64,000 nt of DNA from contig NW_003131947.1 in NCBI RefSeq assembly GCF_000003605.2, positions 1-64,000 on the forward strand, given 5' to 3'. A program made the position numbers and the translations under genes. Each line of letters begins with the position of its first letter. Position 1 is the stretch's first letter. This document shows positions 1 to 64,000 of this stretch, in pieces. Below the pieces are notes generated by a model, which saw only the letters and a program-made list of their open reading frames with translations, ran no database searches and had not been told where the DNA came from. This stretch comes from Saccoglossus kowalevskii. Lineage: Eukaryota; Hemichordata; Enteropneusta; Harrimaniidae.

Positions 1-15
1 TCATATAAAGGAAAA

Positions 16-310
16 GGATTGTGTTCAACTATTTTGGTAGGGCTGCTAGACACTGCCATTCACGAGCGTGATCCCACTACTGCTCCACACGGAAAGTTTT
101 GCCTGCTGTGTTTCCACCCTGGGCCGATTCGTCCCTCATTATACAACCTGGTCGTCCTAACCTCCGTCGGGTCGACCATATTGATGCCGAGCTTAGCATG
201 GACGCCTGATCTCCATAGAAAGACAACTAACATGACTCCCAACCTCAATCCGACCAACAACCCCGGCCTCCAAGTAACTGGATTACAGGCGCACGCCACA
301 ACGCCCAGCC
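16..310 (-). ncRNA. 7SL: SRP RNA gene, copy 1 (CACG form)
   Basis: This is a 295-nt copy with GUGAAUGGC. Its terminator is only T4 (12-15), where sister copies have T5; the flank also reads TCATATAAAG with one A fewer than elsewhere, so a sequence error at the window edge is possible. The upstream spacer is the short type (to 508). The gene body looks the same as copies 23 and 79. Confidence 0.88.
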
Positions 311-508
311 ATTTACGCATGACATTTTAACGCTATTTATTGAATAGAAGACAGTGCCATCTACGATGAAATTGAAAACCATTGAAAATAAATGGATTTA
401 CAGTCATTTTTTGGGGGGTAAAAATACAATGTTCAATGAAAATCGTTTAATTATATTCGATATATGCGATATATTAATATAAAAAGTATACTCAATATAA
501 AGGAAAAA

Positions 509-805
509 GGATTGTGTTCAACTATTTTGGTAGGGCTGCTAGACGCTGCCTATTCACGAACGTGATCCCACTACTGCTCCACACGGGAACTTTTGCCTGC
601 TGTGTTTCCACCCTGGGCCGATTCGTCCCTCATTATACAACCTGGTCGTCCTAACCTCCGTCGGGTCGACCATATTGATGCCGAGCTTAGCATGGACGCC
701 TGATCTCCATAGAAAGACAACTAACATGACTCCCAACCTCAATCCGACCAACAACCCCGGCCTCCAAGTAACTGGATTACAGGCGCACGCCACAACGCCC
801 AGCCC
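509..805 (-). ncRNA. 7SL: SRP RNA gene, copy 2 (CACG form, extra G at 5' end)
   Basis: The 5' end reads GGGCTGGGC rather than GGCTGGGC, an extra base in the first G run. The CACG motif is preceded by a further change (GAACGTG on the + strand). GUGAAUAGGC is intact. T5 terminator at 504-508. The upstream spacer is long, carries a cluster of one-base deletions near 910-942, and contains an intact B-box-like motif (1005-1016). Confidence 0.86.
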
Positions 806-1241
806 ATTTACGCATGACATTTTAACGCTATTTATTGAATAGATGACAGTGCCATCTACGATGGTACCTGGCATCCAACTGGTTTGCATGTCTGTTTTGA
901 AGTTTACACAATATCATGCCCATAACTATCTAGACATCACTACATCAAAGTCGCCTATTCATAAAAACAAACCTCCGACAAAAATGGATACATGGCCTTA
1001 TGACGGAATCGAACTCGTGTTTCTCAGCATAGTTCGTGAACTTAAAACCAAGTGAAAGTGTTCAAAGCGTGAGAAAGTGAAATTAAACACCATTGAAAAT
1101 AAATGGATTTACAGTCATTTGTTTTTTGGGGGGGGGGGTATAAAAATACAATGTTCAATGAAAATCGTTGAATTATGTGTAGTAAATATTCGATATATGC
1201 GATATATTAATATAAAAAGTATACTCAATATAAAGGAAAAA
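806..1241. other. Divergent spacer upstream of copy 2
   Basis: This is a gene-free spacer. It differs from the array consensus in an ACGGAATCGAACTCG stretch (1003-1017), CATAGTTCG, GCGTGAG, a G11 run (1128-1138) and an ATGTGTAGTAAATATTCG insertion near 1174-1192. It matches the spacer at 45,960-46,237 closely. Bases 910-942 have several one-base losses not seen in that twin. Confidence 0.85.
1005..1016 (-). promoter_or_regulatory. B-box-like motif in spacer
   Basis: The minus strand reads GAGTTCGATTCC, close to the polymerase III B box (GGTTCGANTCC). It lies about 200 bases upstream of copy 2. In most other units the same place reads GAGTTCTATTCA, which breaks the motif. I could not fold a tRNA around it: the flanking bases do not form a T stem. 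It could be a relic of a tRNA-like element or chance. Confidence 0.35.
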
Positions 1242-1537
1242 GGATTGTGTTCAACTATTTTGGTAGGGCTGCTAGACGCTGCCTATTCACGAGCGCGATC
1301 CCACTACTGCTCCACACGGGAACTTTTGCCTGCTGTGTTTCCACCCTGGGCCGATTCGTCCCTCTTTATACAACCTGGTCGTCCTAACCTCCGTCGGGAA
1401 GACCATATTGATGCCGAGATTAGCATGGACGCCTGATCTCCATAGAAAGACGACTAACAGGACTCCCAACTTCAACCCGTCCAACAACCCCGCCCTCCAA
1501 GTAACTGGAATACAGGCGCTCGCCACAACGCCCAGCC
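1242..1537 (-). ncRNA. 7SL: SRP RNA gene, copy 3 (divergent, CGCG form)
   Basis: This is among the most divergent full-length copies. The U-turn reads UGUAUUC instead of UGUAAUC. The base of helix 6 (GGTCGACC, pairing with CGACC) is changed to GGTCTTCC, weakening the SRP19-binding hairpin. Helix 8 and GUAGUGGGAUCGCG are intact. T5 at 1237-1241. The TATA region is altered to AATAAATAAC. It is a twin of copy 68, 44,996 bp away. Likely weakly active or inactive (inference). Confidence 0.83.
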
Positions 1538-1960
1538 ATTTACGCCTGACATTTTAACGTTATTTATTGAAAAGAAGACAGTGCCATCTACGATGGGACC
1601 TGGCATCCACCTGGTTTGCTTGTCTGTTTGAAGTTTACACAATAATCATTGCCCAATAACTATCTAAGACAATCACTACATCAAAGTCGCCTATTCATAA
1701 AAACAAACCTCCGACAAAAATGGATACATGGCCTGATGACTGAATAGAACTTATGTTTCTCAGCAGAGTTCGTGAACTTAAAACCAAGTGAAAGTGTTCA
1801 AAGCATGAGAAAGTGAAATTAAAAACCATTGAAAATAAATGGATTTACAGGCATTTGGGGGGGGGGTGGGTAAAAATACAATGTTCAATGAAAATCGTTG
1901 AATTATATTCGATATATGCGATATATTAATATAAAAAGTATACTCAATATAAAGGAAAAA

Positions 1961-2255
1961 GGATTGTGTTCAACTATTTTGGTAGGGCTGCTAGACGCTG
2001 CCTATTCACGAGCGCGATCCCACTACTGCTCCACTCGGGAACTTTTGTCTGCTGTGTTTCCCCCCTGGGCCGATTCGTCCCTCATTATACAACCTGGTCG
2101 TCCTTACTCCGTCGGTTAGACCATATTGATGCCGAGCTTAGCATGGACGCCTGATCTCCATAGGAAGAAGACTGACAGGACTCCCAACCTCAACCCGTCC
2201 AACAACCCCGGCCTCCAAGTAACAGGATTACAGGTGCACGCCACAACGCCCAGCC
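1961..2255 (-). ncRNA. 7SL: SRP RNA gene, copy 4 (divergent, CGCG form)
   Basis: This 295-nt copy has several changes in functional elements. The helix 8 stem GUG is GGG, the helix 6 base is changed (GGTCTAACCG), AGCAGG reads AGCAGA, and further substitutions lie in helix 5. T5 at 1956-1960. The TATA-like element is degraded (AATGAATAAC). Probably a decaying copy (inference). Confidence 0.8.
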
Positions 2256-2674
2256 ATTTACGCTTGACATTTTAACGTTATTCATTGAAAACAAGACAGT
2301 GCCATCTACGATGGTACCTGGCATCCACCTGGTTTGCATGTCTGTTTTGAAGTTTACACAATAATCATTGCCCAATAACTATCTAAGACAATCGCTACAT
2401 CAAAGTCGCCTATTCATAAAAACAAACCTCCGACAAAAATGGATACATGGCCTTATGACTGAATAGAACTCATGTTTCTCAGCAGAGTTCGTGAACTTAA
2501 AACCAAGTGAAAGTGTTCAAAGCATGAGAAAGTGAAATTAAAAACCATTGAAAATAAATGGATTTACAGTCATTTTTTGGGGGGTAAAAATACAATGTTC
2601 AATGAAAATCGTTGAATTATATTCGATATATGCGATATATTAATATAAAAAGTATACTCAATATAAAGGAAAAA

Positions 2675-2970
2675 GGATTGTGTTCAACTATTTTGGTAGG
2701 GCTGCTAGACGCTGCCAATTCACGAGCGTGATCCCACTACTGCTCCACACGGGAACTTTTGCCTGCTGTGTTTCCACCCTGGGCCGATTCGTTCCTCATT
2801 ATACAACATGGTCGTTCTAACCTCCGTCGGGTAGGCCATATTGATGCCGAGCTTAGCATGGACGCCTGATCTCCATAGAAAGACAACTAACAGGACTCCC
2901 AACCTCAACCCGTACAACAACCCCGGCCTCCAAGTAACTGGATTACAGGCGCACGCCACAACGCCCAGCC
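2675..2970 (-). ncRNA. 7SL: SRP RNA gene, copy 5 (CACG form)
   Basis: GTGAATTGGC replaces GTGAATAGGC. The helix 6 base has GGCCTACCCG and the region before helix 8 has CATGTTG. Helix 8 itself is intact. T5 at 2670-2674. Same subfamily as copies 46, 54, 60, 65 and 90, which share the GTACAAC variant in helix 5. Upstream spacer long. Confidence 0.87.
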
Positions 2971-3390
2971 ATTTACGCGTGACATTTTAACGCTATTTAT
3001 TGAATAGATGACAGTGCCATCTACGATGGTACCTGGCATCCACCTGGTTTGCATGTCTGTTTTGAAGTTTACACAATAATCATTGCCCAATAACTATCTA
3101 AGACAATCACTACATCAAAGTCGCCTATTCATAAAAACAAACCTCCGACAAAAATGGATACATGGCCTTATGACTGAATAGAACTCATGTTTCTCAGCAG
3201 AGTTCGTGAACTTAAAACCAAGTGAAAGTGTTCAAAGCATGAGAAAGTGAAATTAAAAACCATTGAAAATAAATGGATTTACAGTAATTTTTGGGGTGAT
3301 AAAAATACAATGTTCAATAAAAATCGTTGAATTATATTCAATATCTGCGATATATTAATATAAAAAGTATACTCAATATAAAGGAAAAAA

Positions 3391-3684
3391 GGATTGTGTT
3401 CAACTATTCTGGTAGGGCTGCTAGACGCTGCCTATTCACGAGCGCGATCCCACTACTGCTCCACACGGAAACTTTTGCCTGCTGTGTTTCCACCCTGGGC
3501 CGATTCGTCTCTCATTATACAACCTGGTCGTCCTAACCTCCGTCGGGTCGACCATATTGATGCCGAGCTTAGCATGGACGCCTGATCTCCATAGAAAGAC
3601 AACTAACAGGACTCCCAACTCACCCGTCCAACAACCCCGGCCTCCAAGTAACTGGATTACAGGCGCACGCCACAACGCCCAGCC
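3391..3684 (-). ncRNA. 7SL: SRP RNA gene, copy 6 (CGCG form)
   Basis: This copy is 294 nt because of a 2-nt loss in the 5' arm of helix 5 (CCAACTCACCCG on the + strand). Helix 6, helix 8 and the CGCG and GTGAATAGGC motifs are intact. T6 at 3385-3390. The promoter side has the GAAGTCAG and CCATCTAAGATGG variants. Confidence 0.88.
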
Positions 3685-4075
3685 ATTTACGCATGACATT
3701 TTAACGCTATTTATTGAATAGAAGTCAGTGCCATCTAAGATGGTACCTGGCATCCACCTGGTTTGCATGTCTGTTTTGAAGTTTACACAATAATCATTGC
3801 CCAATAACTATCTAAGACAATCACTACATCAAAGTCGCCTATTCATAAAAACAAACCTCCGACAAAAATGGATACATGGCCTTATGACTGAATAGAACTC
3901 ATGTTTCTCAGCAGAGTTCGTGAACTTAAAACCAAGTGAAAGTGTTCAAAGCATGAGAAAGTGAAATTAAAAACCATTGAAAATAAATGGATTTACAGTA
4001 ATTTTTGGGGTGATAAAAATACAATGTTCAATAAAAATCGTTGAATTATATTCGATATATGCGATATATTAATAT

Positions 4076-4080
4076 AAAAA
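4076..4080 (-). terminator. Back-up T5 run downstream of copy 7
   Basis: Copy 7 lacks the usual T5-T6 run directly after the gene. On the minus strand the next T run is TTTTT here, 16 bases beyond the expected RNA end. The run is present in nearly all units (AAAAAGTATAC on the + strand), so it normally sits behind the main terminator. Confidence 0.5.
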
Positions 4081-4096
4081 GTATACTCAATATAAA

Positions 4097-4392
4097 GGAT
4101 TGTGTTCAACTATTTTGGTAGGGCTGCTAGACGCTGCCTATTCACGAGCGCGATCCCACTACTGCTCCACACGGAAACTTTTGCCTGCTGTGTTTCCACC
4201 CTGGGCCGATTCGTCCCTCATTATACAACCTGGTCGTCCTAACCTCCGTCGGGTCGACCATATTGATGCCGAGCTTAGCATGGACGCCTGATCTCCATAG
4301 AAAGACAACTAACAGGACTCCCAACCTCAACCCGTCCAACAACCCCGACCTCCAAGTAACTGGATTACAGGCGCACGCCACAACGCCCAGCC
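4097..4392 (-). ncRNA. 7SL: SRP RNA gene, copy 7 (CGCG form, no main terminator)
   Basis: The gene body is intact, with one change in the Alu domain at the foot of helix 5. The sequence after the gene is TATAAAGGATT rather than AAAGGAAAAAAGGATT, so only TTT follows the RNA. The loss fits slippage between two AAAGG repeats. Polymerase III should read on to the T5 at 4076-4080 (inference). Unit length is 708 bp. Confidence 0.87.
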
Positions 4393-4677
4393 ACTTACGC
4401 ATGACATTTTAACGCTATTTATTGAATAGAAGACAGTGCCATCTACGATGGTACCTGGCATCCAACTGGTTTGCATGTCTGTTTTGAAGTTTACACAATA
4501 ATCATTGCCCAATAACTATCTAAGACAATCACTACATCAAAGTCGCCTATTCATAAAAACAAACCTCCGACAAAAATGGATACATGGCCTTATGACTGAA
4601 TAGAACTCATGTTTCTCAGCAGAGTTCGTGAACTTAAAACCAAGTGAAAGTGTTCAAAGCATGAGAAAGTGAAATTA

Positions 4678-4702
4678 AAATCCATAGAAAATAAATGGAT
4701 TT
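4678..4702. repeat. Spacer inverted repeat (8-bp arms)
   Basis: AAATCCAT and ATGGATTT are perfect reverse complements separated by 9 bases. Other units have CCATTG in place of CCATAG and a preceding AA in place of AT, which shortens the arms. The two states mark spacer haplotypes. No function is evident. Confidence 0.6.
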
Positions 4703-4806
4703 ACAGTAATTTTTGGGGTGATAAAAATACAATGTTCAATAAAAATCGTTGAATTATATTCGATATATGCGATATATTAATATAAAAAGTATACTCAATA
4801 TAAAGG

Positions 4807-4812
4807 AAAAAA
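4807..4812 (-). terminator. RNA polymerase III terminator (T6), reference copy 8
   Basis: A run of six T on the minus strand follows directly after CACAATCC, the RNA 3' end. Copies of the CGCG form mostly have T6, and copies of the CACG form mostly T5. Both are adequate polymerase III terminators by general knowledge. Confidence 0.85.
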
Positions 4813-5108
4813 GGATTGTGTTCAACTATTTTGGTAGGGCTGCTAGACGCTGCCTATTCACGAGCGCGATCCCACTACTGCTCCACACGGAAACTTTTGC
4901 CTGCTGTGTTTCCACCCTGGGCCGATTCGTCCCTCATTATACAACCTGGTCGTCCTAACCTCCGTCGGGTCGACCATAGTGATGCCGAGCTTAGCATGGA
5001 CGCCTGATCTCCATAGAAAGACAACTAACAGGACTCCCAACCTCAACCCGTCCAACAACCCCGGCCTCCAAGTAACTGGATTACAGGCGCACGCCACAAC
5101 GCCCAGCC
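4813..5108 (-). ncRNA. 7SL: SRP RNA gene, copy 8 (CGCG form, reference copy)
   Basis: SRP RNA is the scaffold of the signal recognition particle, which targets ribosomes making secretory and membrane proteins to the endoplasmic reticulum. In the 296-nt RNA, positions 1-47 form the Alu domain: GGCG (6-9) pairs with CGCC (20-23), UGUAAUC (24-30) is the SRP9/14-type U-turn, and UCCA (29-32) pairs with UGGA (39-42). Helix 5 closes with GGGUUGU (48-54) against ACAAUCC (290-296). Helix 6 (about 135-161) has GGUCG/CGACC arms and a GGAG loop (146-149). Helix 8 has CCCAGG (188-193), a GUG-GAAA-CAC hairpin (194-203) and AGCAGG (204-209), the SRP54-binding site. GUAGUGGGAUCGCG (231-244) and GUGAAUAG follow. 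This copy has GGCATCACTATGG where most have GGCATCAATATGG. T6 terminator; upstream spacer long. The ends are inferred from motifs (within about 3 bases). Confidence 0.93.
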
Positions 5109-5130
5109 ATTTACGCATGACATTTTAACG

Positions 5131-5139
5131 CTATTTATT
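5131..5139 (-). promoter_or_regulatory. TATA-like element at about -30 (reference copy 8)
   Basis: The minus strand reads AATAAATAG at -31 to -23 from the inferred RNA start. It sits inside the inverted repeat CTATTCAATAAATAG. It is conserved in nearly all units, with changes in copies 3, 4, 28, 45, 63, 68, 87 and 95. The spacing suits a polymerase III gene with an external TATA box, as 7SL genes commonly have. Internal Alu-domain sequence (RNA 11-24) may add an A-box-like signal. Confidence 0.7.
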
Positions 5140-5145
5140 GAATAG

Positions 5146-5166
5146 ATGACAGTGCCATCTACGATG
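5146..5166 (-). promoter_or_regulatory. Conserved promoter-proximal segment, -58 to -38 (candidate PSE-like)
   Basis: This segment includes CATCGTAGATGGCACTGTC. It is retained in both long and short spacers: the recurrent 221-bp spacer deletion begins immediately upstream of it. Position and retention suggest a proximal promoter element, but I cannot match it to a known PSE. Many units have the perfect palindrome variant CCATCTAAGATGG here. Confidence 0.4.
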
Positions 5167-5184
5167 GTACCTGGCATCCAACTG

Positions 5185-5192
5185 GTTTGCAT
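5185..5192 (-). promoter_or_regulatory. Octamer-like motif upstream of copy 8
   Basis: The minus strand reads ATGCAAAC, one base off the octamer ATGCAAAT, at about -84 to -77. It is present in long spacers and absent from short ones, because it lies in the deleted block. Its role is uncertain; a chance match is quite possible. Confidence 0.25.
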
Positions 5193-5527
5193 GTCTGTTT
5201 TGAAGTTTACACAATAATCATTGCCCAATAACTATCTAAGACAATCACTACATCAAAGTCGCCTATTCATAAAAACAAACCTCCGACAAAAATGGATACA
5301 TGGCCTTATGACTGAATAGAACTCATGTTTCTCAGCAGAGTTCGTGAACTTAAAACCAAGTGAAAGTGTTCAAAGCATGAGAAAATGAAATTAAAAACCA
5401 TTGAAAATAAATGGATTTACAGTCATTTTTTGGGGGGTAAAAATACAATGTTCAATGAAAATCGTTGAATTATATTCGATATATGCGATATATTAATATA
5501 AAAAGTATACTCAAAATAAAGGAAAAA

Positions 5528-5822
5528 GGATTGTGTTCAACTATTTTGGTAGGGCTGCTAGACACTGCCATTCACGAGCGTGATCCCACTACTGCTCCAC
5601 ACGGGAAGTTTTGCCTGCTGTGTTTCCATCCTGGGCCGATTCGTCCCTCATTATACAACCTGGTCGTCCTAACCTCCGTCGGGTCGACCATATTGATGCC
5701 GAGCTTAGCATGGACGCCTGATCTCCATAGAAAGACAACTAACAGGACTCCCAACCTCAATCCGTCCAACAACCCCGGCCTCCAAGTAACTGGATTACAG
5801 GCGCACGCCACAACGCCCAGCC
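5528..5822 (-). ncRNA. 7SL: SRP RNA gene, copy 9 (CACG form)
   Basis: This is a 295-nt copy with GUGAAUGGC. The helix 8 stem is AUG-GAAA-CAC, so the outer G-C pair is lost. T5 at 5523-5527, followed by a TCAAAATAAAG variant. The upstream flank has CCATCTAAGATGG and GGTACCAGG. Its close copies are 17, 39, 82 and 86. Confidence 0.89.
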
Positions 5823-6241
5823 ATTTACGCATGACATTTTAACGCTATTTATTGAATAGAAGTCAGTGCCATCTAAGATGGTACCAGGCATCCACCTGGT
5901 TTGCATGTCTGTTTTGAAGTTTACACAATAATCATTGCCCAATAACTATCTAAGACAATCGCTACATCAAAGTCGCCTATTCATAAAAACAAACCTCCGA
6001 CAAAAATGGATACATGGCCTTATGACTGAATAGAAGTCATGTTTCTCAGCAGAGTTCGTGAACTTAAAACCAAGTGAAAATGTTCATAGCATGAGAAAGT
6101 GAAATTAAAAACCATTGAAAATAAATGGATTTACAGTCATTTTTTGGGGGGTAAAAATACAATGTTCAATGAAAATCGTTTAATTATATTCGATATATGC
6201 GATATATTAATATAAAAAGTATACTCAATATAAAGGAAAAA

Positions 6242-6537
6242 GGATTGTGTTCAACTATTTTGTTCGGGCTGCTAGACGCTGCCTATTCACGAGCGTGATC
6301 CCACTACTGCTCCACACGGGAACTTTTACCTGCTGTGTTTCCACCCTGGGCCGATTCGTCCCTCATTATACAACCTGGTCGTCCTAACCTTCGTCGGGTC
6401 GACCATATTGATGCCGAGCTTAGCATGGACGCCTGATCTCCATAGAAAGACAACTAACAGGACTCCCAACCTCAATCCGTCCAACAACCCCGGCCTCCAA
6501 GTAACTGGATTACAGGCGCACGCCACAACGCCCAGCC
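6242..6537 (-). ncRNA. 7SL: SRP RNA gene, copy 10 (CACG form, GAAG helix 6 loop)
   Basis: The helix 6 tetraloop is GAAG instead of GGAG, still within the GNAR consensus. AGCAGG reads AGCAGGU after the hairpin, and the 3' region has CCCGAACAAAA. GUGAAUAGGC is kept. T5 at 6237-6241. Copy 84 has the same set of changes. The upstream spacer has extra bases in A, T and A runs around 6715-6772. Confidence 0.88.
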
Positions 6538-6960
6538 ATTTACGCATGACATTTTAACGCTATTTATTGAATAGAAGTCAGTGCCATCTAAGATGGTACC
6601 TGGCATCCACCTGGTTTGCATGTCTGTTTTGAAGTTTACACAATAATCATTGCCCAATAACTATCTAAGACAATCACTACATCAAAGTCGCCTATTCATA
6701 AAAACAAACCTCCGACAAAAAATGGATACATGGCCTTATGACTGAATAGAACTCATGTTTTCTCAGCAGAAGTTCGTGAACTTAAAACCAAGTGAAAGTG
6801 TTCAAAGCATGAGAAAGTGAAATTAAAAACCATTGAAAATAAATGGATTTACAGTCATTTTTTGGGGGGGTAAAAATACAATGTTCAATGAAAATCGTTG
6901 AATTATATTCGATATATGCGATATATTAATATAAAAAGTATACTCAATATAAAGGAAAAA

Positions 6961-7255
6961 GGATTGTGTTCAACTATTTTGGTAGGGCTGCTAGACACTG
7001 CCATTCACGAGCGTGATCCCACTACTGCTCCACACGGGAAGTTTTGCCTGCTGTGTTTCCACCCTGGGCCGGTTCGTTCCTCATTATACAACCTGGTCGT
7101 CCTAACCTCCGTCGGGTCGACCATATTGATGCCGAGCTTAGCATGGACGCCTGATCTCCATAGAAAGACAACTAACAGGACTCCCAACCTCAATCCGACC
7201 AACAACCCCGGCCTCCAAGTAACTGGATTACAGGCGCACGCCGCAACGCCCAGCC
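6961..7255 (-). ncRNA. 7SL: SRP RNA gene, copy 11 (CACG form)
   Basis: This is a 295-nt copy with GUGAAUGGC. Its specific changes are GAACCGGCCC just before helix 8 (which matches the human base as I recall it) and GTTGCGGCG in the Alu domain. T5 at 6956-6960. Copies 25 and 51 share these changes. Upstream spacer long. Confidence 0.89.
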
Positions 7256-7675
7256 ATTTACGCCTGACATTTTAACGCTATTTATTGAATAGAAGTCAGT
7301 GCCATCTAAGATGGTACCTGGCATCCACCTGGTTTGCATGTCTGTTTTGAAGTTTACACAATAATCATTGCCCAATAACTATCTAAGACAATCGCTACAT
7401 CAAAGTCGGCTATTCATAAAAACAAACCTCCGACAAAAATGGATACATGGCCTTATGACTGAATAGAACTCATGTTTCTCAGCAGAGTTCGTGAACTTAA
7501 AACCAAGTGAAAGTGTTCAAAGCATGAGAAAGTGAAATTAAAAACCATTGAAAATAAATGGATTTACAGTCATTTTTTTGGGGGTAAAAATACAATGTTC
7601 AATGAAAATCGTTGAATTATATTCGATATATGCGATATATTAATATAAAAAGTATACTCAATATAAAGGAAAAAA

Positions 7676-7971
7676 GGATTGTGTTCAACTATTTTGGTAG
7701 GGCTGCTAGACGCTGCCTATTCACGAGCGCGATCCCACTACTGCTCCACACGGAAACTTTTGCCTGCTGTGTTTCCACCCTGGGCCGATTCGTCCCTCAT
7801 TATACAACCTGGTCGTCCTAACCTCCGTCGGGTCGACTATATTGATGCCGAGCTTAGCATGGACGCCTGATCTCCATAGAAAGACAACTAACAGGACTCC
7901 CAACCTCAATCCGACCAACAACCCCGGCCTCCAAGTAACTGGATTACAGGCGCACGCCACAACGCCCAGCC
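7676..7971 (-). ncRNA. 7SL: SRP RNA gene, copy 12 (CGCG form)
   Basis: The core motifs are intact. One change lies in the arm of helix 6 (GGCATCAATATAGTCG) and the CGACC-side variant GGTCGG in helix 5. T6 at 7670-7675. The pair of copies 11-12 recurs as copies 70-71 with the same 716-bp spacing, apart from a loop-side base in copy 11. Confidence 0.9.
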
Positions 7972-8283
7972 ATTTACGCATGACATTTTAACGCTATTTA
8001 TTGAATAGAAGTCAGTGCCATCTAAGATGGTACCTGGCATCCACCTGGTTTGCATGTCTGTTTTGAAGTTTACACAATAATCATTGCCCAATAACTATCT
8101 AAGACAATCGCTACATCAAAGTCGCCTATTCATAAAAACAAACCTCCGACAAAAATGGATACATGGCCTTATGACTGAATAGAACTCATGTTTCTCAGCA
8201 GAGTTCGTGAACTTAAAACCAAGTGAAAGTGTTCAAAGCATGAGAAAGTGAAATTAAAAACCATTGAAAATAAATGGATTTAC

Positions 8284-8335: not shown

Positions 8336-8390
8336 TATTCGATATATGCGATATATTAATATAAAAAGTATACTCAATATAAAGGAAAAA

Positions 8391-26651: not shown

Positions 26652-27070
26652 ATTTACGCATGACATTTTAACGCTATTTATTGAATAGAAGACAGTGCCA
26701 TCTAAGATGGTACCTGGCATCCACCTGGTTTGCATGTCTGTTTTGAAGTTTACACAATAATCATTGCCCAATAACTATCTAAGACAATCGCTACATCAAA
26801 GTCGCCTATTCATAAAAACAAACCTCCGACAAAAATGGATACATGGCCTTATGACTGAATAGAACTAATGTTTCTCAGCAGAGTTCGTGAACTTAAAACC
26901 AAGTGAAAGTGTTCAAAGCATGAGAAAGTGAAATTAAAAACCATTGAAAATAAATGGATTTACAGTAATTTTTGGGGTGATAAAAATACAATGTTCAATA
27001 AAAATCGTTGAATTATATTCGATATATGCGATATGGTAATATAAAAAGTATACTCAATATAAAGGAAAAA

Positions 27071-27366
27071 GGATTGTGTTCAACTATTTTGGTAGGGCTG
27101 CTAGACGCTGCCTATTCACGAGCGCGATCCCACTACTGCTCCACACGGGAACTTTTGCCTGCTGTGTTTCCACCCTGGGCCGATTCGTCCCTCATTACAC
27201 AACCTGGTCGTCCTAACCTCCGTCGGGTCGACCATATTGATGAAGAGCTTAGCATGGACGCCTGATCTCCATAGAAAGGCGACTAACAGGACTCCCAACC
27301 TCAACCCGTCCAACAACCCCGGCCTCCAAGTAACTGGATTACAGGCGCACGCCACAACGCCCAGCC
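27071..27366 (-). ncRNA. 7SL: SRP RNA gene, copy 41 (CGCG form)
   Basis: GGCATC before helix 6 is changed to CTTCATC, and GTGTAATG lies between helices 6 and 8. GTCGCCTTTC in helix 5 is shared with copies 42, 43, 47, 57, 58, 61 and 66. T5 at 27066-27070. The downstream spacer has CGATATGGTAATA, shared with copy 57. Confidence 0.88.
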
Positions 27367-27785
27367 ATTTACGCCTGACATTTTAACGCTATTTATTGAA
27401 TAGAAGACAGTGCCATCTACGATGGAACCTGGCATCCAACTGGTTTGCATGTCTGTTTTGAAGTTTACACAATAATCATTGCCCAATAACTATCTAAGAC
27501 AATCGCTACATCAAAGTCGCCTATTCATAAAAACAAACCTCCAACAAAAATGGATACATGGCCTTATGACTGAATAGAACTCATGTTTCTCAGCAGAGTT
27601 CGTGAACTTAAAACCAAGTGAAAGTGTTCAAAGCATGAGAAAGTGAAATTAAAAACCATTGAAAATAAATGGATTTACAGTCATTTTTTGGGGGGTAAAA
27701 ATACAATGTTCAATGAAAATCGTTGAATTATATTCGATATATGCGATATATTAATATAAAAAGTATACTCAATATAAAGGAAAAA

Positions 27786-55577: not shown

Positions 55578-55872
55578 GGATTGTGTTCAACTATTTTGGT
55601 AGGGCTGCTAGACACTGCCATTCACGAGCGTGATCCCACTACTGCTCCACACGGGAAGTTTTGCCTGCTGTGTTTCCATCCTGGGCCGATTCGTCCCTCA
55701 TTATACAACCTGGTCGTCCTAACCTCCGTCGGGTCGACCATATTGATGCCGAGCTTAGCATGGACGCCTGATCTCCATAGAAAGACAACTAACAGGACTC
55801 CCAACCTCAATCCGTCCAATAACCCCGGCCTCCAAGTAACTGGATTACAGGCGCACGCCACAACGCCCAGCC
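55578..55872 (-). ncRNA. 7SL: SRP RNA gene, copy 82 (CACG form)
   Basis: This 295-nt copy is of the copy 17 type with GGGGTTATTGG at helix 5 (consensus GTTGTTGG). T5 at 55573-55577. Upstream spacer short, with a G13 run (55974-55986). Confidence 0.89.
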
Positions 55873-56076
55873 ATTTACGCATGACATTTTAACGCTATTT
55901 ATTGAATAGAAGACAGTGCCATCTACGATGAAATTAAAAACCATTGAAAATAAATGGATTGACAGTCATTTTTGGGGGGGGGGGGGTAAAAATACAATGT
56001 TCAATGAAAATCGTTGAATTATATTCGATATATGCGATATATTAATATAAAAAGTATACTCAATATAAAGGAAAAA

Positions 56077-56306
56077 GGATTGTGTTCAACTATTTTGGTA
56101 GGGCTGCTAGACGATGCCTATTCACGAACGTGATCCCATTACTGCTCCACACGGGAACTCCGTCGGGTCGACCATATTGATGCCGAGCTTAGCATGGACG
56201 CCTGATCTCCATAGAAAGACAACTAACAGGACTCCCAACCTCAATCCGTCCAACAACCCCGGCCTCCAAGTAACTGGATTACAGGCGCACGCCACAACGC
56301 CCAGCC
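56077..56306 (-). pseudogene. 7SL: SRP RNA gene, copy 83, lacking helix 8 (66-nt deletion)
   Basis: This copy is 230 nt. About 66 nt are missing between the helix 6 GGAG loop and the AGTTCCCGTG segment, so half of helix 6, helix 7 and all of helix 8 (SRP54-binding site) are gone. The Alu domain, promoter and T5 terminator (56072-56076) are intact. GGCATCGTC and GTAATGGGATC are further changes. If transcribed, the RNA could bind SRP9/14 but should not bind SRP54 (inference). Confidence 0.9.
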
Positions 56307-56725
56307 ATTTACGCATGACATTTTAACGCTATTTATTGAATAGAAGTCAGTGCCATCTAAGATGGTACCAGGCATCCACCTGGTTTGCATGTCTGTTTTG
56401 AAGTTTACACAATAATCATTGCCCAATAACTATCTAAGACAATCGCTACATCAAAGTCGCCTATTCATAAAAACAAACCTCCGACAAAAATGGATACATG
56501 GCCTTATGACTGAATAGAAGTCATGTTTCTCAGCAGAGTTCGTGAACTTAAAACCAAGTGAAAATGTTCAAAGCATGAGAAAGTGAAATTAAAAACCATT
56601 GAAAATAAATGGATTTACAGTCATTTTTTGGGGGGTAAAAATACAATGTTCAATGAAAATCGTTTAATTATATTCGAAATATGCGATATATTAATATAAA
56701 AAGTATACTCAATATAAAGGAAAAA

Positions 56726-57021
56726 GGATTGTGTTCAACTATTTTGTTCGGGCTGCTAGACGCTGCCTATTCACGAGCGTGATCCCACTACTGCTCCACA
56801 CGGGAACTTTTACCTGCTGTGTTTCCACCCTGGGCCGATTCGTCCCTCATTATACAACCTGGTCGTCCTAACCTTCGTCGGGTCGACCATATTGATGCCG
56901 AGCTTAGCATGGACGCCTGATCTCCATAGAAAGACAACTAACAGGACTCCCAACCTCAACCCGTCCAACAACCCCGGCCTCCAAGTAACTGGATTACAGG
57001 CGCACGCCACAACGCCCAGCC
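56726..57021 (-). ncRNA. 7SL: SRP RNA gene, copy 84 (CACG form, GAAG helix 6 loop)
   Basis: The gene is the same as copy 10 in its 3' two thirds (CCCGAACAAAA, GAAG loop, AGCAGGU), but helix 5 is GGACGGGTTG and the promoter flank is GTCATCTATT. T5 at 56721-56725. The spacer downstream has TTCGAAATATGCG. Confidence 0.88.
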
Positions 57022-57445
57022 ATTTACGCATGACATTTTAACGCTATTTATTGAATAGATGACAGTGCCATCTACGATGGTACCTGGCATCCAACTGGTT
57101 TGCATGTCTGTTTTGAAGTTTACACAATAATCATTGCCCAATAACTATCTAAGACAATCACTACATCAAAGTCGCCTATTCATAAAAAAACCTCCGACAA
57201 AAATGGATACTAGTACATGGCCTTATGACTGAATAGAACTCATGTTTCTCAGCAGAGTTCGTGAACTTAAAACCAAGTGAAAGTGTTCAAAGCATGAGAA
57301 AGTGAAATTAAAATCCATAGAAAATAAATGGATTTACAGTAATTTTTGGGGTGATAAAAATACAATGTTCAATAAAAATCGTTGAATTATATTCGATATA
57401 TGCGATATATTAATATAAAAAGTATACTCAATATAAAGGAAAAAA

Positions 57446-57741
57446 GGATTGTGTTCAACTATTTTGGTAGGGCTGCTAGACGCTGCCTATTCACGAGCGC
57501 GATCCCACTACTGCTCCACATGGAAACTTTTGCTTGCTGTGTTTCCACCCTGGGCCGATTCGTCCCTCATTATACAACCTGGTCGTCATAACCTCCGTCT
57601 GGTCGACCATATTGATGCCGAGCTTAGCATGGACGCCTGATCTCCATAGAAAGACGAATAACAGGAATCCCAACCTCAACCCGTCCAACAACCCCGGCCT
57701 CCAAGTAACTGGATTACAGGCGCACGCCACAACGCCCAGCC
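57446..57741 (-). ncRNA. 7SL: SRP RNA gene, copy 85 (CGCG form)
   Basis: The gene is the same as copy 16, including TTATTCGTC. T6 at 57440-57445. The downstream spacer carries the GATACTAGTACATGG insertion near 57,207, so this unit is 720 bp. Confidence 0.89.
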
Positions 57742-58160
57742 ATTTACGCATGACATTTTAACGCTATTTATTGAATAGAAGTCAGTGCCATCTAAGATGG
57801 TACCTGGCATCCACCTGGTTTGCATGTCTGTTTTGAAGTTTACACAATAATCATTGCCCAATAACTATCTAAGACAATCACTACATCAAAGTCGCCTATT
57901 CATAAAAACAAACCTCCGACAAAAATGGATACATGGCCTTATGACTGAATAGAACTCATGTTTCTCAGCAGAGTTCGTGAACTTAAAACCAAGTGAAAGT
58001 GTTCAAAGCATGAGAAAATGAAATTAAAAACCATTGAAAATAAATGGATTTACAGTCATTTTTTGGGGGGTAAAAATACAATGTTCAATGAAAATCGTTG
58101 AATTATATTCGATATATGCGATATATTAATATAAAAAGTATACTCAAAATAAAGGAAAAA

Positions 58161-58455
58161 GGATTGTGTTCAACTATTTTGGTAGGGCTGCTAGACACTG
58201 CCATTCACGAGCGTGATCCCACTACTGCTCCACACGGGAAGTTTTGCCTGCTGTGTTTCCATCCTGGGCCGATTCGTCCCTCATTATACAACCTGGTCGT
58301 CCTAACCTCCGTCGGGTCGACCATATTGATGCCGAGCTTAGCATGGACGCCTGATCTCCATAGAAAGACAACTAACAGGACTCCCAACCTCAATCCGTCC
58401 AACAACCCCGGCCTCCAAGTAACTGGATTACAGGCGCACGCCACAACGCCCAGCC
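58161..58455 (-). ncRNA. 7SL: SRP RNA gene, copy 86 (CACG form)
   Basis: This 295-nt copy is of the copy 17 type. T5 at 58156-58160. The upstream spacer is short, with a G13 run (58558-58570) and GGATTGACAG, as in the block of copies 81-83. Confidence 0.89.
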
Positions 58456-58660
58456 ATTTACGCATGACATTTTAACGCTATTTATTGAATAGAAGACAGT
58501 GCCATCTACGATGAAATTAAAAACCATTGAAAATAAATGGATTGACAGTCATTTTTTGGGGGGGGGGGGGTAAAAATACAATGTTCAATGAAAATCGTTG
58601 AATTATATTCGATATATGCGATATATTAATATAAAAAGTATACTCAATATAAAGGAAAAA

Positions 58661-58890
58661 GGATTGTGTTCAACTATTTTGGTAGGGCTGCTAGACGATG
58701 CCTATTCACGAACGTGATCCCATTACTGCTCCACACGGGAACTCCGTCGGGTCGACCATATTGATGCCGAGCTTAGCATGGACACCTGATCTCCATAGAA
58801 AGACAACTAACAGGACTCCCAACCTCAATCCGTCCAACAACCCCGGCCTCCAAGTAACTGGATTACAGGCGCACGCCACAACGCCCAGCC
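58661..58890 (-). pseudogene. 7SL: SRP RNA gene, copy 87, lacking helix 8 (66-nt deletion)
   Basis: This copy is 230 nt with the same deletion junction as copy 83, from which it differs by AGGTGTCC before helix 6. T5 at 58656-58660. The TATA-like element is AATAATTAG. The presence of the same rare deletion in both tandem blocks shows that the block was duplicated after the deletion. Confidence 0.9.
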
Positions 58891-59308
58891 ATTTACGCAT
58901 GACATTTTAACGCTAATTATTGAATAGAAGACAGTGCCATATACGATGGTACCTGGCATCCAACTGGTTTGCATGTCTGTTTTGAAGTTTACACAATAAT
59001 CATTGCCCAATAACTATCTAAGACAATCACAACATCAAAGTCGCCTATTCATAAAAACAAACCTCCGACAAAAATGGATACATGGCCTTATGACTGAATA
59101 GAACTCATGTTTCTCAGCAGAGTTCGTGAACTTAAAACCAAGTGAAAATGTTCAAAGCATGAGAAAGTGAAATTAAAAACCATTGAAAATAAATGGATTT
59201 ACAGTCATTTTTTGGGGGTAAAAATACAATGTTCAATGCAAATCGTTGAATTATATTCGATATATGCGATATATTAATATAAAAAGTATACTCAATATAA
59301 AGGAAAAA

Positions 59309-59604
59309 GGATTGTGTTCAACCATTTTGGTAGGGCTGCTAGACGCTGCCTATTCACGAGCGTGATCCCACTACTGCTCCACACGGGAACTTTTGCCTGC
59401 TGTGTTTCCACCCTGGGCCGATTCGTCCCACCTTATACAACCTGGTCGTCCTAACCTCCGTCGGGTCGACCATATTGATGCCGAGCTTAGCATGGACGCC
59501 TGATCTCCATAGAAAGACAACTAACAGGACTCCCAACCTCAACCCGTCCAACAACCCCGACCTCCAAGTAACTGGATTACAGGCGCACGCCACAACGCCC
59601 AGCC
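59309..59604 (-). ncRNA. 7SL: SRP RNA gene, copy 88 (CACG form)
   Basis: It is of the copy 31 type (GTATAAGGTGGGACG, CCAAAATGG) with GGAGGTCGGGG at the foot of helix 5. T5 at 59304-59308. Confidence 0.89.
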
Positions 59605-60022
59605 ATTTACGCATGACATTTTAACGCTATTTATTGAATAGATGACAGTGCCATCTACGATGGTACCTGGCATCCAACTGGTTTGCATGTCTGTTTTGAA
59701 GTTTACACAATAATCATTGCCCAATAACTATCTAAGACAATCACTACATCAAAGTCGCCTATTCATAAAAAAACCTCCGACAAAAATGGATACATGGCCT
59801 TATGACTGAATAGAACTCATGTTTCTCAGCAGAGTTCGTGAACTTAAAACCAAGTGAAAGTGTTCAAAGCATGAGAAAGTGAAATTAAAATCCATAGAAA
59901 ATAAATGGATTTACAGTAATTTTTGGGGTGATAAAAATACAATGTTCAATAAAAATCGTTGAATTATATTCGATATATGCGATATATTAATATAAAAAGT
60001 ATACTCAATATAAAGGAAAAAA

Positions 60023-60316
60023 GGATTGTGTTCAACTATTTTGGTAGGGCTGCTAGACGCTGCCTATTCACGAGCGATCCCACTACTGCTCCACACGGAA
60101 ACTTTTGCCTGCTGTGTTTCCACCCTGGGCCGATTCGTCCCTCATTATACAACCTGGTCGTCCTAACCTCCGTCGGGTCGACCATATTGATGCCGAGCTT
60201 AGCATGGACGCCTGATCTCCATAGAAAGACAACTAACAGGACTCCCAACCTCAACCCGTCCAACAACCCCGGCCTCCAAGTAACTAGATTACAGGCGCAC
60301 GCCACAACGCCCAGCC
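60023..60316 (-). ncRNA. 7SL: SRP RNA gene, copy 89 (2-nt deletion form)
   Basis: This copy is 294 nt and of the copy 49/64 type (GGGATCGCTCG, TGTAATCTAG). T6 at 60017-60022. The upstream flank has ACGATTGAACC and AACCGCCGAC, matching copy 64. Confidence 0.88.
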
Positions 60317-60734
60317 ATTTACGCATGACATTTTAACGCTATTTATTGAATAGAAGACAGTGCCATCTACGATTGAACCTGGCATCCAACTGGTTTGCAT
60401 GTCTGTTTTGAAGTTTACACAATAATCATTGCTCAATAACTATCTAAGACAATCACTACATCAAAGTCGCCTATTCATAAAAACAAACCGCCGACAAAAA
60501 TGGATACATGGCCTTATGACTGAATAGAACTCGTGTTTCTCAGCAGAGTTCGTGAACTTAAAACCAAGTGAAAGTGTTCAAAGCATGAGAAAGTGAAATT
60601 AAAAACCATTGAAATAAATGGATTTACAGTCATTTTTTGGGGGGTAAAAATACAATGTCAATGAAAATCGTTGAATTATATTCGATATATGCGATATATT
60701 AATATAAAAAGTATACTCAATATAAAGGAAAAAA

Positions 60735-61028
60735 GGATTGTGTCAACTATTTGGTAGGGCTGCTAGACGCTGCCAATTCACGATCGTGATCCCACTACTG
60801 CTTCACACGGGAACTTTTGCCTGCTGTGTTTCCACCCTGGGCCGATTCGTCCCTCATTATACAACATGGTCGTCCTAACCTCCGTCGGGTCGGCCATATT
60901 GATGCCGAGCTTAGCATGGACGCCTGATCTCCATAGAAAGACAACTAACAGGACTCCCAACCTCAACCCGTACAACAACCCCGGCCTCCAAGTAACTGGA
61001 TTACAGGCGCACGCCACAACGCCCAGCC
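60735..61028 (-). ncRNA. 7SL: SRP RNA gene, copy 90 (CACG form)
   Basis: It is of the copy 60 type but 294 nt, with one-base losses in TTGACACAATCC and CTACCAAATAG near the 3' end. The neighbouring spacer also has one-base losses (TTGAAATAAATGG, CAATGTCAATG). They may be sequence errors. T6 at 60729-60734. Confidence 0.86.
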
Positions 61029-61446
61029 ATTTACGCATGACATTTTAACGCTATTTATTGAATAGATGACAGTGCCATCTACGATGGTACCTGGCATCCA
61101 ACTGGTTTGCATGTCTGTTTTGAAGTTTACACAATAATCATTGCCCAATAACTATCTAAGACAATCACTACATCAAAGTCGCCTATTCATAAAAAAACCT
61201 CCGACAAAAATGGATACATTGCCTTATGACTGAATAGAACTCATGTTTCTCAGCAGAGTTCGTGAACTTAAAACCAAGTGAAAGTGTTCAAAGCATGAGA
61301 AAGTGAAATTAAAATCCATTGAAAATAAATGGATTTACAGTAATTTTTGGGGTGATAAAAATACAATGTTCAATAAAAATCGTTGAATTATGTTCGATAT
61401 ATGCGATATATTAATATAAAAAGTATACTCAATATAAAGGAAAAAA

Positions 61447-61742
61447 GGATTGTGTTCAACTATTTTGGTAGGGCTGCTAGACGCTGCCTATTCACGAGCG
61501 CGATCCCACTACTGATCCACACGGAAACTTTTGCCTGCTGTGTTTCCATCCTGGGCCGATTCGTCCCTCATTATACAACCTGGTCGTCCTAACCTCCGTC
61601 GGGTCGACCATATTGATGCCGAGCTTAGCATGGACGCCTGATCTCCATAGAAAGACAACTATCATGACTCCCAACCTCAACCCGTCCAACAACCCCGGCC
61701 TCCAAGTAACTGGATTACAGGCGCACGCCACAACGCCCAGCC
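61447..61742 (-). ncRNA. 7SL: SRP RNA gene, copy 91 (CGCG form)
   Basis: GTGGATCAGTAG (as human GATCAGTAG in my recall), the AUG-GAAA-CAC helix 8 stem, and GAGTCATGATAG in helix 5. It resembles copy 30. T6 at 61441-61446. Confidence 0.89.
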
Positions 61743-62161
61743 ATTTACGCATGACATTTTAACGCTATTTATTGAATAGAAGACAGTGCCATCTACGATG
61801 GTACCTGGCATCCAACTGGTTTGCATGTCTGTTTTGAAGTTTACACAATAATTATTGCCCAATAACTATCTAAGACAATCACTACATCAAAGTCGCCTAT
61901 TCATAAAAACAAACCGCCGACAAAAATGGATACATGGCCTTATGACTGAATAGAACTCGTGTTTCTCAGCAGAGTTCGTGAACTTAAAACCAAGTGAAAG
62001 TGTTCAAAGCATGAGAAAGTGAAATTAAAAACCATTGAAAATAAATGGATTTACAGTCATTTTTTGGGGGGTAAAAATACAATGTTCAATGAAAATCGTT
62101 GAATTATATTCGATATATGCGATATATTAATATAAAAAGTATACTCAATATAAAGGAAAAA

Positions 62162-62456
62162 GGATTGTGTTCAACTATTTTGGTAGGGCTGCTAGACACT
62201 GCCATTCACGAGCGTGATCCCACTACTGCTCCACACGGGAAGTTTTGCCTGCTGTGTTTCCACCCTGGGCCGATTCGTCCCTCATTATACAACCTGGTCG
62301 TCCTAACCTCCGTCGGGTCGACCATATTGATGCCGAGCTTAGCATGGACGCCTGATCTCCATAGAAAGACAACAAACAGGACTCCCAACCTCAATCCGAC
62401 CAACAACCCCGGCCTCCAAGTAACTGGATTACAGGCGCACGCCACAACGCCCAGCC
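62162..62456 (-). ncRNA. 7SL: SRP RNA gene, copy 92 (CACG form)
   Basis: This is a 295-nt copy with GUGAAUGGC and one change in helix 5 (CCTGTTTGTTG). T5 at 62157-62161. Its short upstream spacer starts the run of three short units at the right end of the window. Confidence 0.9.
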
Positions 62457-62654
62457 ATTTACGCATGACATTTTAACGCTATTTATTGAATAGAAGACAG
62501 TGCCATCTACGATGAAATTAAAAACCATTGAAAATAAATGGATTTACAGTCATTTTTTGGGGGGTAAAAATACAATGTTCAATGAAAATCGTTTAATTAT
62601 ATTCGATATATGCGATATATTAATATAAAAAGTATACTCAATATAAAGGAAAAA

Positions 62655-62949
62655 GGATTGTGTTCAACTATTTTGGTAGGGCTGCTAGACACTGCCATTC
62701 ACGAGCGTGATCCCACTACTGCTCCACACGGGAAGTTTTGCCTGCTGTGTTTCCACCCTGTGCCGATTCGTCCCTCCTTATACAACCTGGTCGTCCTAAC
62801 CTCCGTCGGGTCGACCATATTGATGCCGAGCTTAGCATGGACGCCTGATCTCCATAGAAAGACAACTAACAGGACTCCCAACCTCAATCCGACCAACAAC
62901 CCCGGCCTCCAAGTAACTGGATTACAGGCGCACGCCGCAACGCCCAGCC
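62655..62949 (-). ncRNA. 7SL: SRP RNA gene, copy 93 (CACG form)
   Basis: This 295-nt copy has CGGCACAGGG in place of CGGCCCAGGG at helix 8 and GTATAAGGAGGG before it. T5 at 62650-62654. Upstream spacer short. Copy 94 appears identical. Confidence 0.89.
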
Positions 62950-63147
62950 ATTTACGCATGACATTTTAACGCTATTTATTGAATAGAAGACAGTGCCATC
63001 TACGATGAAATTAAAAACCATTGAAAATAAATGGATTTACAGTCATTTTTTGGGGGGTAAAAATACAATGTTCAATGAAAATCGTTTAATTATATTCGAT
63101 ATATGCGATATATTAATATAAAAAGTATACTCAATATAAAGGAAAAA

Positions 63148-63442
63148 GGATTGTGTTCAACTATTTTGGTAGGGCTGCTAGACACTGCCATTCACGAGCG
63201 TGATCCCACTACTGCTCCACACGGGAAGTTTTGCCTGCTGTGTTTCCACCCTGTGCCGATTCGTCCCTCCTTATACAACCTGGTCGTCCTAACCTCCGTC
63301 GGGTCGACCATATTGATGCCGAGCTTAGCATGGACGCCTGATCTCCATAGAAAGACAACTAACAGGACTCCCAACCTCAATCCGACCAACAACCCCGGCC
63401 TCCAAGTAACTGGATTACAGGCGCACGCCGCAACGCCCAGCC
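63148..63442 (-). ncRNA. 7SL: SRP RNA gene, copy 94 (CACG form)
   Basis: The gene and short spacer appear identical to copy 93 and its spacer, with exactly 493 bp between them: the cleanest recent single-unit duplication in the window. T5 at 63143-63147. Confidence 0.9.
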
Positions 63443-63640
63443 ATTTACGCATGACATTTTAACGCTATTTATTGAATAGAAGACAGTGCCATCTACGATG
63501 AAATTAAAAACCATTGAAAATAAATGGATTTACAGTCATTTTTTGGGGGGTAAAAATACAATGTTCAATGAAAATCGTTGAATTATATTCGATATATGCG
63601 ATATATTAATATAAAAAGTATACTCAATATAAAGGAAAAA

Positions 63641-63936
63641 GGATTGTGTTCAACTATTTTGGTAGGGCTGCTAGACGCTGCCTATTCACGAGCGTGATCC
63701 CACTACTGCTCCACACGGGAACTTTTGCCTGCTGTGTTTCCATCCTGGGCCGATTCGTCCCTCATTATACAACCTGGTCGTCCTAACCTCCGTCGGGTCG
63801 ACCATATTGATGCCGAGCTTAGCATGGACGCCTGATCTCATTAGAAAGACCACTAACAGGACTCCCAACCTCAACCCGTCCAACAACCCCGGCCTCCAAG
63901 TAACTGGATTACAGGCGCACGCCACAACGCCCAGCC
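63641..63936 (-). ncRNA. 7SL: SRP RNA gene, copy 95 (CACG form)
   Basis: GUGAAUAGGC is kept. The helix 8 stem is AUG-GAAA-CAC, and TAGTGGTCTTTCTAATGAG lies in helix 5. T5 at 63636-63640. The TATA region reads AATAAATGG. The promoter continues to the end of the window. Confidence 0.88.
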
Positions 63937-64000
63937 ATTTACGCATGACATTTTAACGCCATTTATTGAATAGATGACAGTGCCATCTACGATGGTACCT

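What the first reader, a model, noticed from the sequence alone, without database searches (positions are those of the whole stretch)
1..64000. At least 95 SRP RNA (7SL) genes in one head-to-tail array
Seen: every unit of this satellite-like array holds a near full-length SRP RNA on the minus strand with the Alu-domain U-turn, helix 6 GGAG loop, helix 8 GAAA hairpin with CCCAGG and AGCAGG, and GTGGGATCGCG, plus a TATA-like element at -30 and a T-run terminator. Known: well-studied animals have only a few functional 7SL genes, unlike 5S or rRNA genes. Inference: this genome may supply SRP RNA from an rDNA-like tandem locus, or a satellite has been built from a 7SL gene.
Basis: partly seen in the sequence, partly recalled or inferred. 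Interest (0 to 1): 0.92.

Follow-up and report, generated by a model that had tools for sequence, protein, structure and literature searches.

The report
Tandem array of 7SL RNA genes
An animal-type genome carries at least 160 full-length or near full-length genes for the signal recognition particle RNA head to tail, like ribosomal DNA, where the human genome is described as having only a handful; whether they supply the cell's SRP RNA or are becoming a satellite is not yet known.

Summary
A TATA-like box lies at -31 in 87 of 95, a T-run of 5 or more at the 3' end of 94. In the 572-Mb assembly the array continues on the window's contig (107 genes) and fills a second contig (53 genes). Outside them I found one dispersed full-length gene (C4562, 259.3 bits, the highest score seen) and one 5'-truncated copy. 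Promoter and gene were copied together, so the units were multiplied as DNA, not as SINEs. Function is less clear. Variants avoid Rfam-conserved columns (17 against 31.0 expected), yet the gene varies like spacer, 51 of 156 copies have a core change, and the array RNA folds less stably than the dispersed gene's. Best reading: a homogenised SRP RNA gene array under weak constraint that probably adds SRP RNA beside the dispersed gene. Main rival: a 7SL-derived satellite. Closest precedent: rodent 4.5SH tandem genes.

The parts
1..64000 (-). uninterrupted head-to-tail array of 95 SRP RNA gene units; runs on past the window's end to the end of contig C2369 (72,765 bp)
27068..27365 (-). best-scoring SRP RNA gene of the window (245.5 bits), representative copy
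27390..27396 (-). TATA-like box ATAAATA at -31..-25 of the representative copy (at -31 in 87 of 95 copies)
27408..27418 (-). upstream element AGATGGCACTG at -53..-43 (found within 80 bp upstream of 90 of 95 copies, at -53 in 88); also upstream of the dispersed gene, with G for A, 13 bp farther from its TATA box
27066..27070 (-). T5 run at the RNA 3' end, putative pol III terminator (longest T-run 5 or more in 94 of 95 copies)
506..803 (-). SRP RNA gene of a long unit
62159..63441 (-). three consecutive SRP RNA genes at 493-bp spacing (short units; about 222 bp of spacer missing, one shared junction)
56074..56305 (-). SRP RNA copy with 66-nt internal deletion (125.1 bits)
58658..58889 (-). SRP RNA copy with 66-nt internal deletion (123.5 bits)

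Best explanation
This is a genuine tandem array of SRP (7SL) RNA genes. A duplicated relative of the dispersed 7SL gene was amplified as DNA, with its own upstream promoter and terminator, to at least 160 units, and unequal exchange and gene conversion keep the units alike (copy number, structure and homogenisation shown; route inferred). Most units look able to be transcribed by RNA polymerase III from a TATA-like box at -31 plus internal elements and to end at a T-run (sequence shown, activity inferred). The array probably adds SRP RNA to that of the dispersed gene, with each copy individually nearly dispensable and therefore under weak selection (inferred).
For: 95 of 95 hits span the whole model. 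TATA at -31 in 87 of 95 and T-run of 5 or more in 94 of 95. Promoter regions of array and dispersed gene are homologous (score 72, 0 of 500 shuffles reach it), so promoter and gene were copied together. All 139 genome-wide exact matches to the helix-8 core are accounted for: 95 on C2369, 42 on C3417, 1 on C4562, 1 on C1732. Variants avoid Rfam-conserved columns: 17 of 133 against 31.0 (sd 4.3) expected, P 0.0006 (two deletion copies left out); on 156 full-length genes of both contigs 33 of 203 against 47.9 (sd 6.1), P 0.0074 (four deletion copies left out); Fisher p 0.0066 by site. Variants carried by more than five window genes (22) break 2 pairs net against 7.8 expected, P 0.024. Homogenisation: identical genes lie far apart (e.g. 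5525, 11025, 25639, 58158), divergence hardly grows with distance along the array (Spearman 0.057), genes of the two contigs are mixed on the tree (32 label changes, shuffled mean 32.6).
Against: No expression data. Gene pi 0.0296 is no lower than spacer (0.0308 upstream, 0.0199 3' flank), and the -60..-1 region is higher (0.0455; 78 long units of 94). 51 of 156 full-length copies have a change in one of seven core elements. The array consensus forms 94 of 120 model pairs against 97 for the dispersed gene, and MFE is -99.8 against -112.3 kcal/mol. Variants do not avoid paired columns (115 of 133, expected 109.1; paired sites 0.479 variants per site, unpaired 0.310), compensatory double changes are almost absent (one pair, 2 genes), and 147 changed pair cells are broken against 169 kept by one-sided change. 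Net broken pairs over all variants, 41 against 50.7, is not significant (P 0.06). Fold energy is not protected overall: single-variant test P 0.16 (of three frequency classes only variants seen in one distinct gene are milder, P 0.043); tied permutation 14 of 60 replicates at or above the observed mean; an untied version ran the other way, 40 of 40 replicates more stable than the real genes.
Confidence: 0.57

Rival explanations
1. A 7SL-derived satellite: a duplicated, partly decayed 7SL gene was amplified by satellite dynamics, is silent or nearly so, and the dispersed gene on C4562 alone supplies SRP RNA.
For: Gene as variable as spacer; core changes in 51 of 156 copies; paired sites more variable than unpaired and hardly any compensatory change; array RNA with three fewer model pairs and weaker MFE than the dispersed gene; the dispersed gene has the highest score seen; the spacing between upstream element and TATA box is 13 bp shorter in the array; toward one end of C3417 four of nine whole genes of the last stretch score only 187-203 bits (L015).
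Against: Variants avoid Rfam-conserved columns in both data sets, which overlap; silent decay would not give that. TATA-like box in 89, T-run of 5 or more in 94 and full-length gene in 93 of 95 units. Of the 10 differences from the dispersed gene, the array allele equals the Rfam consensus at three (49, 90, 181) and the dispersed allele at four (85, 89, 112, 245), so the array is not simply the decayed side.
Confidence: 0.34
2. The array makes an RNA with a new job, as 4.5SH RNA does in rodents, rather than SRP RNA.
For: Precedent: 4.5SH genes come from 7SL RNA, sit in hundreds of tandem repeats and have a non-SRP function (PMC10137851, PMC7279448; passages). At eight of the 10 differences the dispersed allele is absent or rare (at most 3 of 164 BLAST rows) in the arrays.
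Against: The units keep the whole SRP RNA, S domain included, with its core elements singly intact in 139-152 of 156 copies.
Confidence: 0.05
3. Assembly artefact: a short tandem cluster or single gene inflated by misassembly.
For: Both array contigs end inside the array; read coverage could not be checked.
Against: 66 distinct gene sequences among 93 full-length copies in the window, 112 distinct among 156 in both contigs; the longest alignment between the two contigs at 98.5% identity or more is 2,357 bp. Collapse of identical units would lower, not raise, the count.
Confidence: 0.03
4. A 7SL-derived SINE family (Alu/B1-like) that became tandem.
For: SINEs of 7SL origin exist in primates, rodents and hagfish (PMC10886601 passage).
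Against: No A-tail after the gene in the unit consensus; promoter upstream of the gene is copied with it; full-length gene including the S domain; only 2 of 139 genome-wide core matches lie outside the array contigs.
Confidence: 0.01

Closest known systems
4.5SH RNA genes of mouse-like rodents
   Same: 7SL-derived pol III genes in hundreds of tandem copies with a TATA-like box at -31/-24 (PMC10137851, PMC7279448; passages)
   Different: 4.5SH is a small nuclear RNA in 4-5 kb repeats (passages); that it is far shorter than 7SL and lacks the S domain is recalled. Here the whole SRP RNA (298 nt) is kept in 493-743 bp units
Dispersed animal SRP (7SL) RNA genes
   Same: RF00017 full-length match; TATA-like box at the position (-31/-24) it has in mammalian 7SL genes, though there the consensus is CTCTAGTA (PMC7279448 passage); T-run terminator
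   [quoted passage not shown] here 160 tandem copies plus one dispersed gene
5S rDNA, U1 and U2 tandem arrays (recalled)
   Same: short units with one small-RNA gene, own promoter, concerted evolution
   Different: gene is SRP RNA; gene not more conserved than spacer
Small-RNA gene cluster with SRP RNA in the dinoflagellate Karenia brevis
   Different: there with SL RNA, tRNAs and U6; here SRP RNA alone and metazoan type
7SL-derived SINEs (Alu, B1, hagfish SINE1)
   Same: 7SL origin, internal pol III promoter
   Different: SINEs spread by retroposition and keep only part of the RNA (recalled); this array is DNA-amplified with its flanking promoter

Membership tests
Metazoan SRP RNA (RF00017) | full-length covariance-model match above gathering score | tested here: met
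   95 of 95 in window above 70 bits, all model 1-299
Metazoan SRP RNA (RF00017) | Alu-domain U-turn and L2, helix-6 GNAR loop, helix-8 core | tested here: met
   seven core elements together as in the consensus in 105 of 156 full-length array copies; singly 139-152 of 156; by another set of five strings 64 of 95
Metazoan SRP RNA (RF00017) | binds SRP9/14, SRP19, SRP54 and is transcribed | not testable with these tools
   no RNA or protein data
Functional tandem small-RNA gene array (5S/U2-like) | head-to-tail units each with gene, promoter and terminator | tested here: met
   (TATA-like box in 89 of 95, T-run of 5 or more in 94 of 95)
Functional tandem small-RNA gene array (5S/U2-like) | gene conserved more than spacer within the array | tested here: not met
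   gene pi 0.0296, upstream spacer 0.0308, 3' flank 0.0199; only the 68 Rfam-conserved columns are quieter, 0.25 against 0.50 variants per site
Functional tandem small-RNA gene array (5S/U2-like) | concerted evolution | tested here: met
   non-adjacent identical genes, nearly flat divergence with distance, contigs mixed on tree
7SL-derived SINE | dispersed, retroposed copies with A-rich tail | tested here: not met
   137 of 139 genome-wide core matches lie in the two array contigs; unit consensus shows no A-tail after the gene; target-site duplications not looked for
4.5SH-like RNA gene | only a short 7SL-derived portion retained (recalled) | tested here: not met
   298-nt full-length genes
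snRNA-type (PSE) pol III promoter | upstream element shared with other small-RNA genes of the genome | tested here: inconclusive
   20 other genomic copies of the dispersed gene's element have no Rfam match within the 371-bp stretches scanned (0 of 20); the U6 search did not complete

The most novel reading that the evidence does not exclude
An animal draws a large share of its SRP RNA from an rDNA-like tandem locus of at least 160 full-length or near full-length 7SL genes, so SRP dose is set by array copy number and evolves by concerted evolution, and the array RNA is a distinct SRP RNA variant from the dispersed gene's.
Probability: 0.4. Interest if true: 0.8.

Novelty: new variant of a known kind. 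Interest (0 to 1): 0.62.

Why it matters
In human, matches to SRP RNA beyond a handful are taken to be pseudogenes (PMC4383904 passage). An array of 160 mostly intact copies would make SRP RNA dose a copy-number trait, give a natural case of concerted evolution acting on a structured essential RNA, and show how a pol III gene can become satellite-like without retroposition. The fixed differences from the dispersed gene make the expression question directly testable from ordinary total-RNA reads.

Tried and rejected
Upstream element as a PSE: the dispersed gene's element TAGATGGCGCTGTC has 21 exact genomic matches against 1 for the reversed pattern, but none of the other 20 places has an Rfam match (E up to 0.1) in the 371-bp stretch scanned, and five (L058, L064-L067) look by eye like one repeat. 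It resembles the CTCF core as I recall it; not tested.

Fold-energy test of selection: gave no overall support; the first, untied version counts inherited variants many times.

Coral lead: a FISH signal with human Alu primers in Coelastrea aspera (PMC4856926, passages) is no evidence of an SRP array. The tick small-RNA paper (PMC10062562, passages) treats SRP RNA as an ordinary pol III gene.

Relatives by DNA: no exact match in IMG/VR or GTDB contigs to a 25-mer or to the helix-8 pattern, none by blastn in plasmids or phages. Organism not identified: one of six reading frames from the dispersed gene's flanks matched Pfam (a reverse transcriptase); one protein search found nothing, the other 358 proteins, 120 listed, with no name beyond 'hypothetical protein'. 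COX1, U6 and 5S searches of the genome did not complete. Other RNA genes in the spacer: in one 2.1-kb stretch none beyond weak mir-1268 matches over the SRP gene; no tRNA in the window. A first contig-against-contig BLAST (word size 200) returned nothing and was replaced.

Literature: ten searches of open-licence PMC papers. In the listings (some capped: 25 of 34, 15 of 36, 25 of 62, 24 of 25) and in the passages I opened in 12 papers, of which one had no occurrence of the terms (PMC13197249), nothing described a tandem array of full-length SRP RNA genes in an animal. Subscription papers are mostly not in that library.
Full report
Observation. The whole window is one array. Rfam's cmscan finds 95 matches at gathering thresholds, all to RF00017 (Metazoa_SRP). 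All are on the minus strand and all cover model positions 1-299; 93 score 201.5-245.5 bits and two 125.1 and 123.5 bits because of a 66-nt deletion. The 94 start-to-start spacings range from 493 to 743 bp, with 48 at 714-716 and 11 at 493. There are no tRNAs, and a permissive scan of one 2.1-kb stretch shows nothing else but weak mir-1268 matches over the gene.

Anatomy of a unit. In transcription order there is spacer, an upstream element AGATGGCACTG (within 80 bp upstream of 90 of 95 genes, at -53 in 88), a TATA-like ATAAATA (89 of 95, at -31 in 87), the 298-nt gene, and a T-run (5 or longer in 94 of 95). Mammalian 7SL genes have their TATA-like box at -31/-24 too, with another sequence (PMC7279448, passages). 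Sixteen of 94 units are short: they lack about 222 bp of spacer, with the same junction in all 16. The consensus folds into the expected rod with Alu-domain hairpins and helix 8. Only one of 95 genes has an internal TTTT.

Genome context. The window is the first 64 kb of contig C2369 (72,765 bp) in an assembly of 572,110,611 bp and 4,830 contigs. Rfam hits add 12 genes on the rest of C2369 (107 in all) and 53 on C3417 (36,546 bp), all on the minus strand; two C3417 genes lie across cuts between my stretches, and the one that gave two hits is counted once. Both contigs begin and end inside the array. The longest alignment between them at 98.5% identity or more is 2,357 bp, so they do not look like the same segment twice. 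The genome search with RF00017 scored 26 of 1,274 first-look candidates; its best match was a single gene on C4562 (44764-45061, 259.3 bits), above every array gene scored here (highest 251.1). The helix-8 core pattern has 139 exact matches genome-wide, and all are accounted for: 95 on C2369, 42 on C3417, 1 on C4562, 1 on C1732. Copies with a change in that pattern elsewhere would be missed. The C1732 copy lacks the first 48 model positions (187.6 bits), array or dispersed-gene promoter sequence was not found before it, and it looks like a pseudogene.

Array against dispersed gene. The dispersed gene differs from the window's array consensus at 10 of 298 positions. At 89, 90, 112, 245 and 261 all 93 full-length window genes differ from it; on both contigs together no row carries the dispersed allele at these five. 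The truncated C1732 copy has the dispersed allele at 8 of the 10 sites and the array allele at 112 and 245. The dispersed allele equals the Rfam consensus at 85, 89, 112 and 245, the array allele at 49, 90 and 181, neither at 61, 138 and 261; the two RNAs match the Rfam consensus at 207 and 206 of 298 positions. So neither is simply the decayed one. Still, the array consensus forms 94 of 120 model pairs against 97 and has an MFE of -99.8 against -112.3 kcal/mol. The promoters are homologous (local score 72; highest of 500 shuffles 34), with the upstream element 13 bp nearer the TATA box in the array. Promoter and gene were therefore copied together: duplication of DNA, not retroposition.

Is the array under constraint? 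Evidence for: the 133 distinct variants in 93 full-length window genes (the two deletion copies left out) hit Rfam-conserved columns 17 times against 31.0 (sd 4.3) in 5,000 base-matched simulations, P 0.0006. By site, 16 of 68 conserved columns vary against 97 of 230 others, Fisher p 0.0066, and the result holds without CpG sites (p 0.0067). With 156 full-length genes of both contigs (8 of 164 BLAST rows, the four split deletion copies, left out; this set contains the first) it is 33 of 203 against 47.9 (sd 6.1), P 0.0074. Variants carried by more than five window genes break 2 pairs net against 7.8 expected, P 0.024; the rarer classes do not differ significantly. Evidence against: pi of the gene (0.0296) is that of the upstream spacer (0.0308) and exceeds the 3' flank (0.0199), and the promoter region is at 0.0455 (78 long units). 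Variants do not avoid paired columns (115 of 133, expected 109.1); paired sites are the more variable, and only one pair shows a compensatory double change, in 2 genes. Net broken pairs over all variants are only marginally fewer than chance (41 against 50.7, P 0.06). Fold-energy tests show no protection overall. All seven core elements are intact in 105 of 156 copies. I read this as weak but real selection on copies that are individually nearly dispensable.

Homogenisation. Identical genes lie kilobases to tens of kilobases apart; divergence barely rises with distance in the array (Spearman 0.057, reached by 23 of 500 permutations); genes of the two contigs are mixed on the tree (119 tips, 32 label changes, shuffled mean 32.6). 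Copies of 232 nt, from a deletion of the same length, occur on both contigs. This is what unequal exchange and conversion produce.

Verdict. A tandem array of full-length SRP RNA genes is certain on sequence, assembly error aside. That it adds SRP RNA is my best reading; a 7SL-derived satellite beside one working gene is the main rival. [quoted passage not shown] The nearest precedent I found is the 4.5SH RNA of rodents: 7SL-derived, hundreds of tandem copies in 4-5 kb repeats (PMC10137851, PMC7279448, passages). The present case keeps the whole SRP RNA. My ten literature searches over open-licence papers, several with capped listings, showed none describing such an array. The organism remains unidentified.

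Noticed in passing
upstream of most units at -53, and G000 contigs listed: The element TAGATGGCGCTGTC of the dispersed gene has 21 exact genomic matches against 1 for its reversed control; it resembles the CTCF core as recalled, so the array (with GGCAC for GGCGC) may hold a CTCF-like site in most units.
   Followed up: partly
L015 (C3417:30001-36546): Four of nine whole SRP genes in this last stretch of the second contig score only 187-203 bits, as if approaching an array edge.
   Followed up: no
L048:42-286 (C1732:265042-265286): 5'-truncated SRP RNA copy of the dispersed-gene type; its T-rich 3' flank aligns with that of the dispersed gene a little better than any of 500 shuffles (55 against 51).
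   Followed up: partly
L011:4620-5486 (C4562:54620-55486): Reverse transcriptase frame (PF00078) about 10 kb downstream of the dispersed SRP gene.
   Followed up: partly
window, 20 places such as 5465-5842: A 125-aa TTG-started open frame recurs on the plus strand, antisense over the SRP gene, in 20 places; probably mechanical.
   Followed up: no
window, spacers, e.g. 413-418, 1128-1138, 1857-1866: A G-run of variable length on the plus strand of the spacer (6, 11 and 10 G in these three).
   Followed up: no
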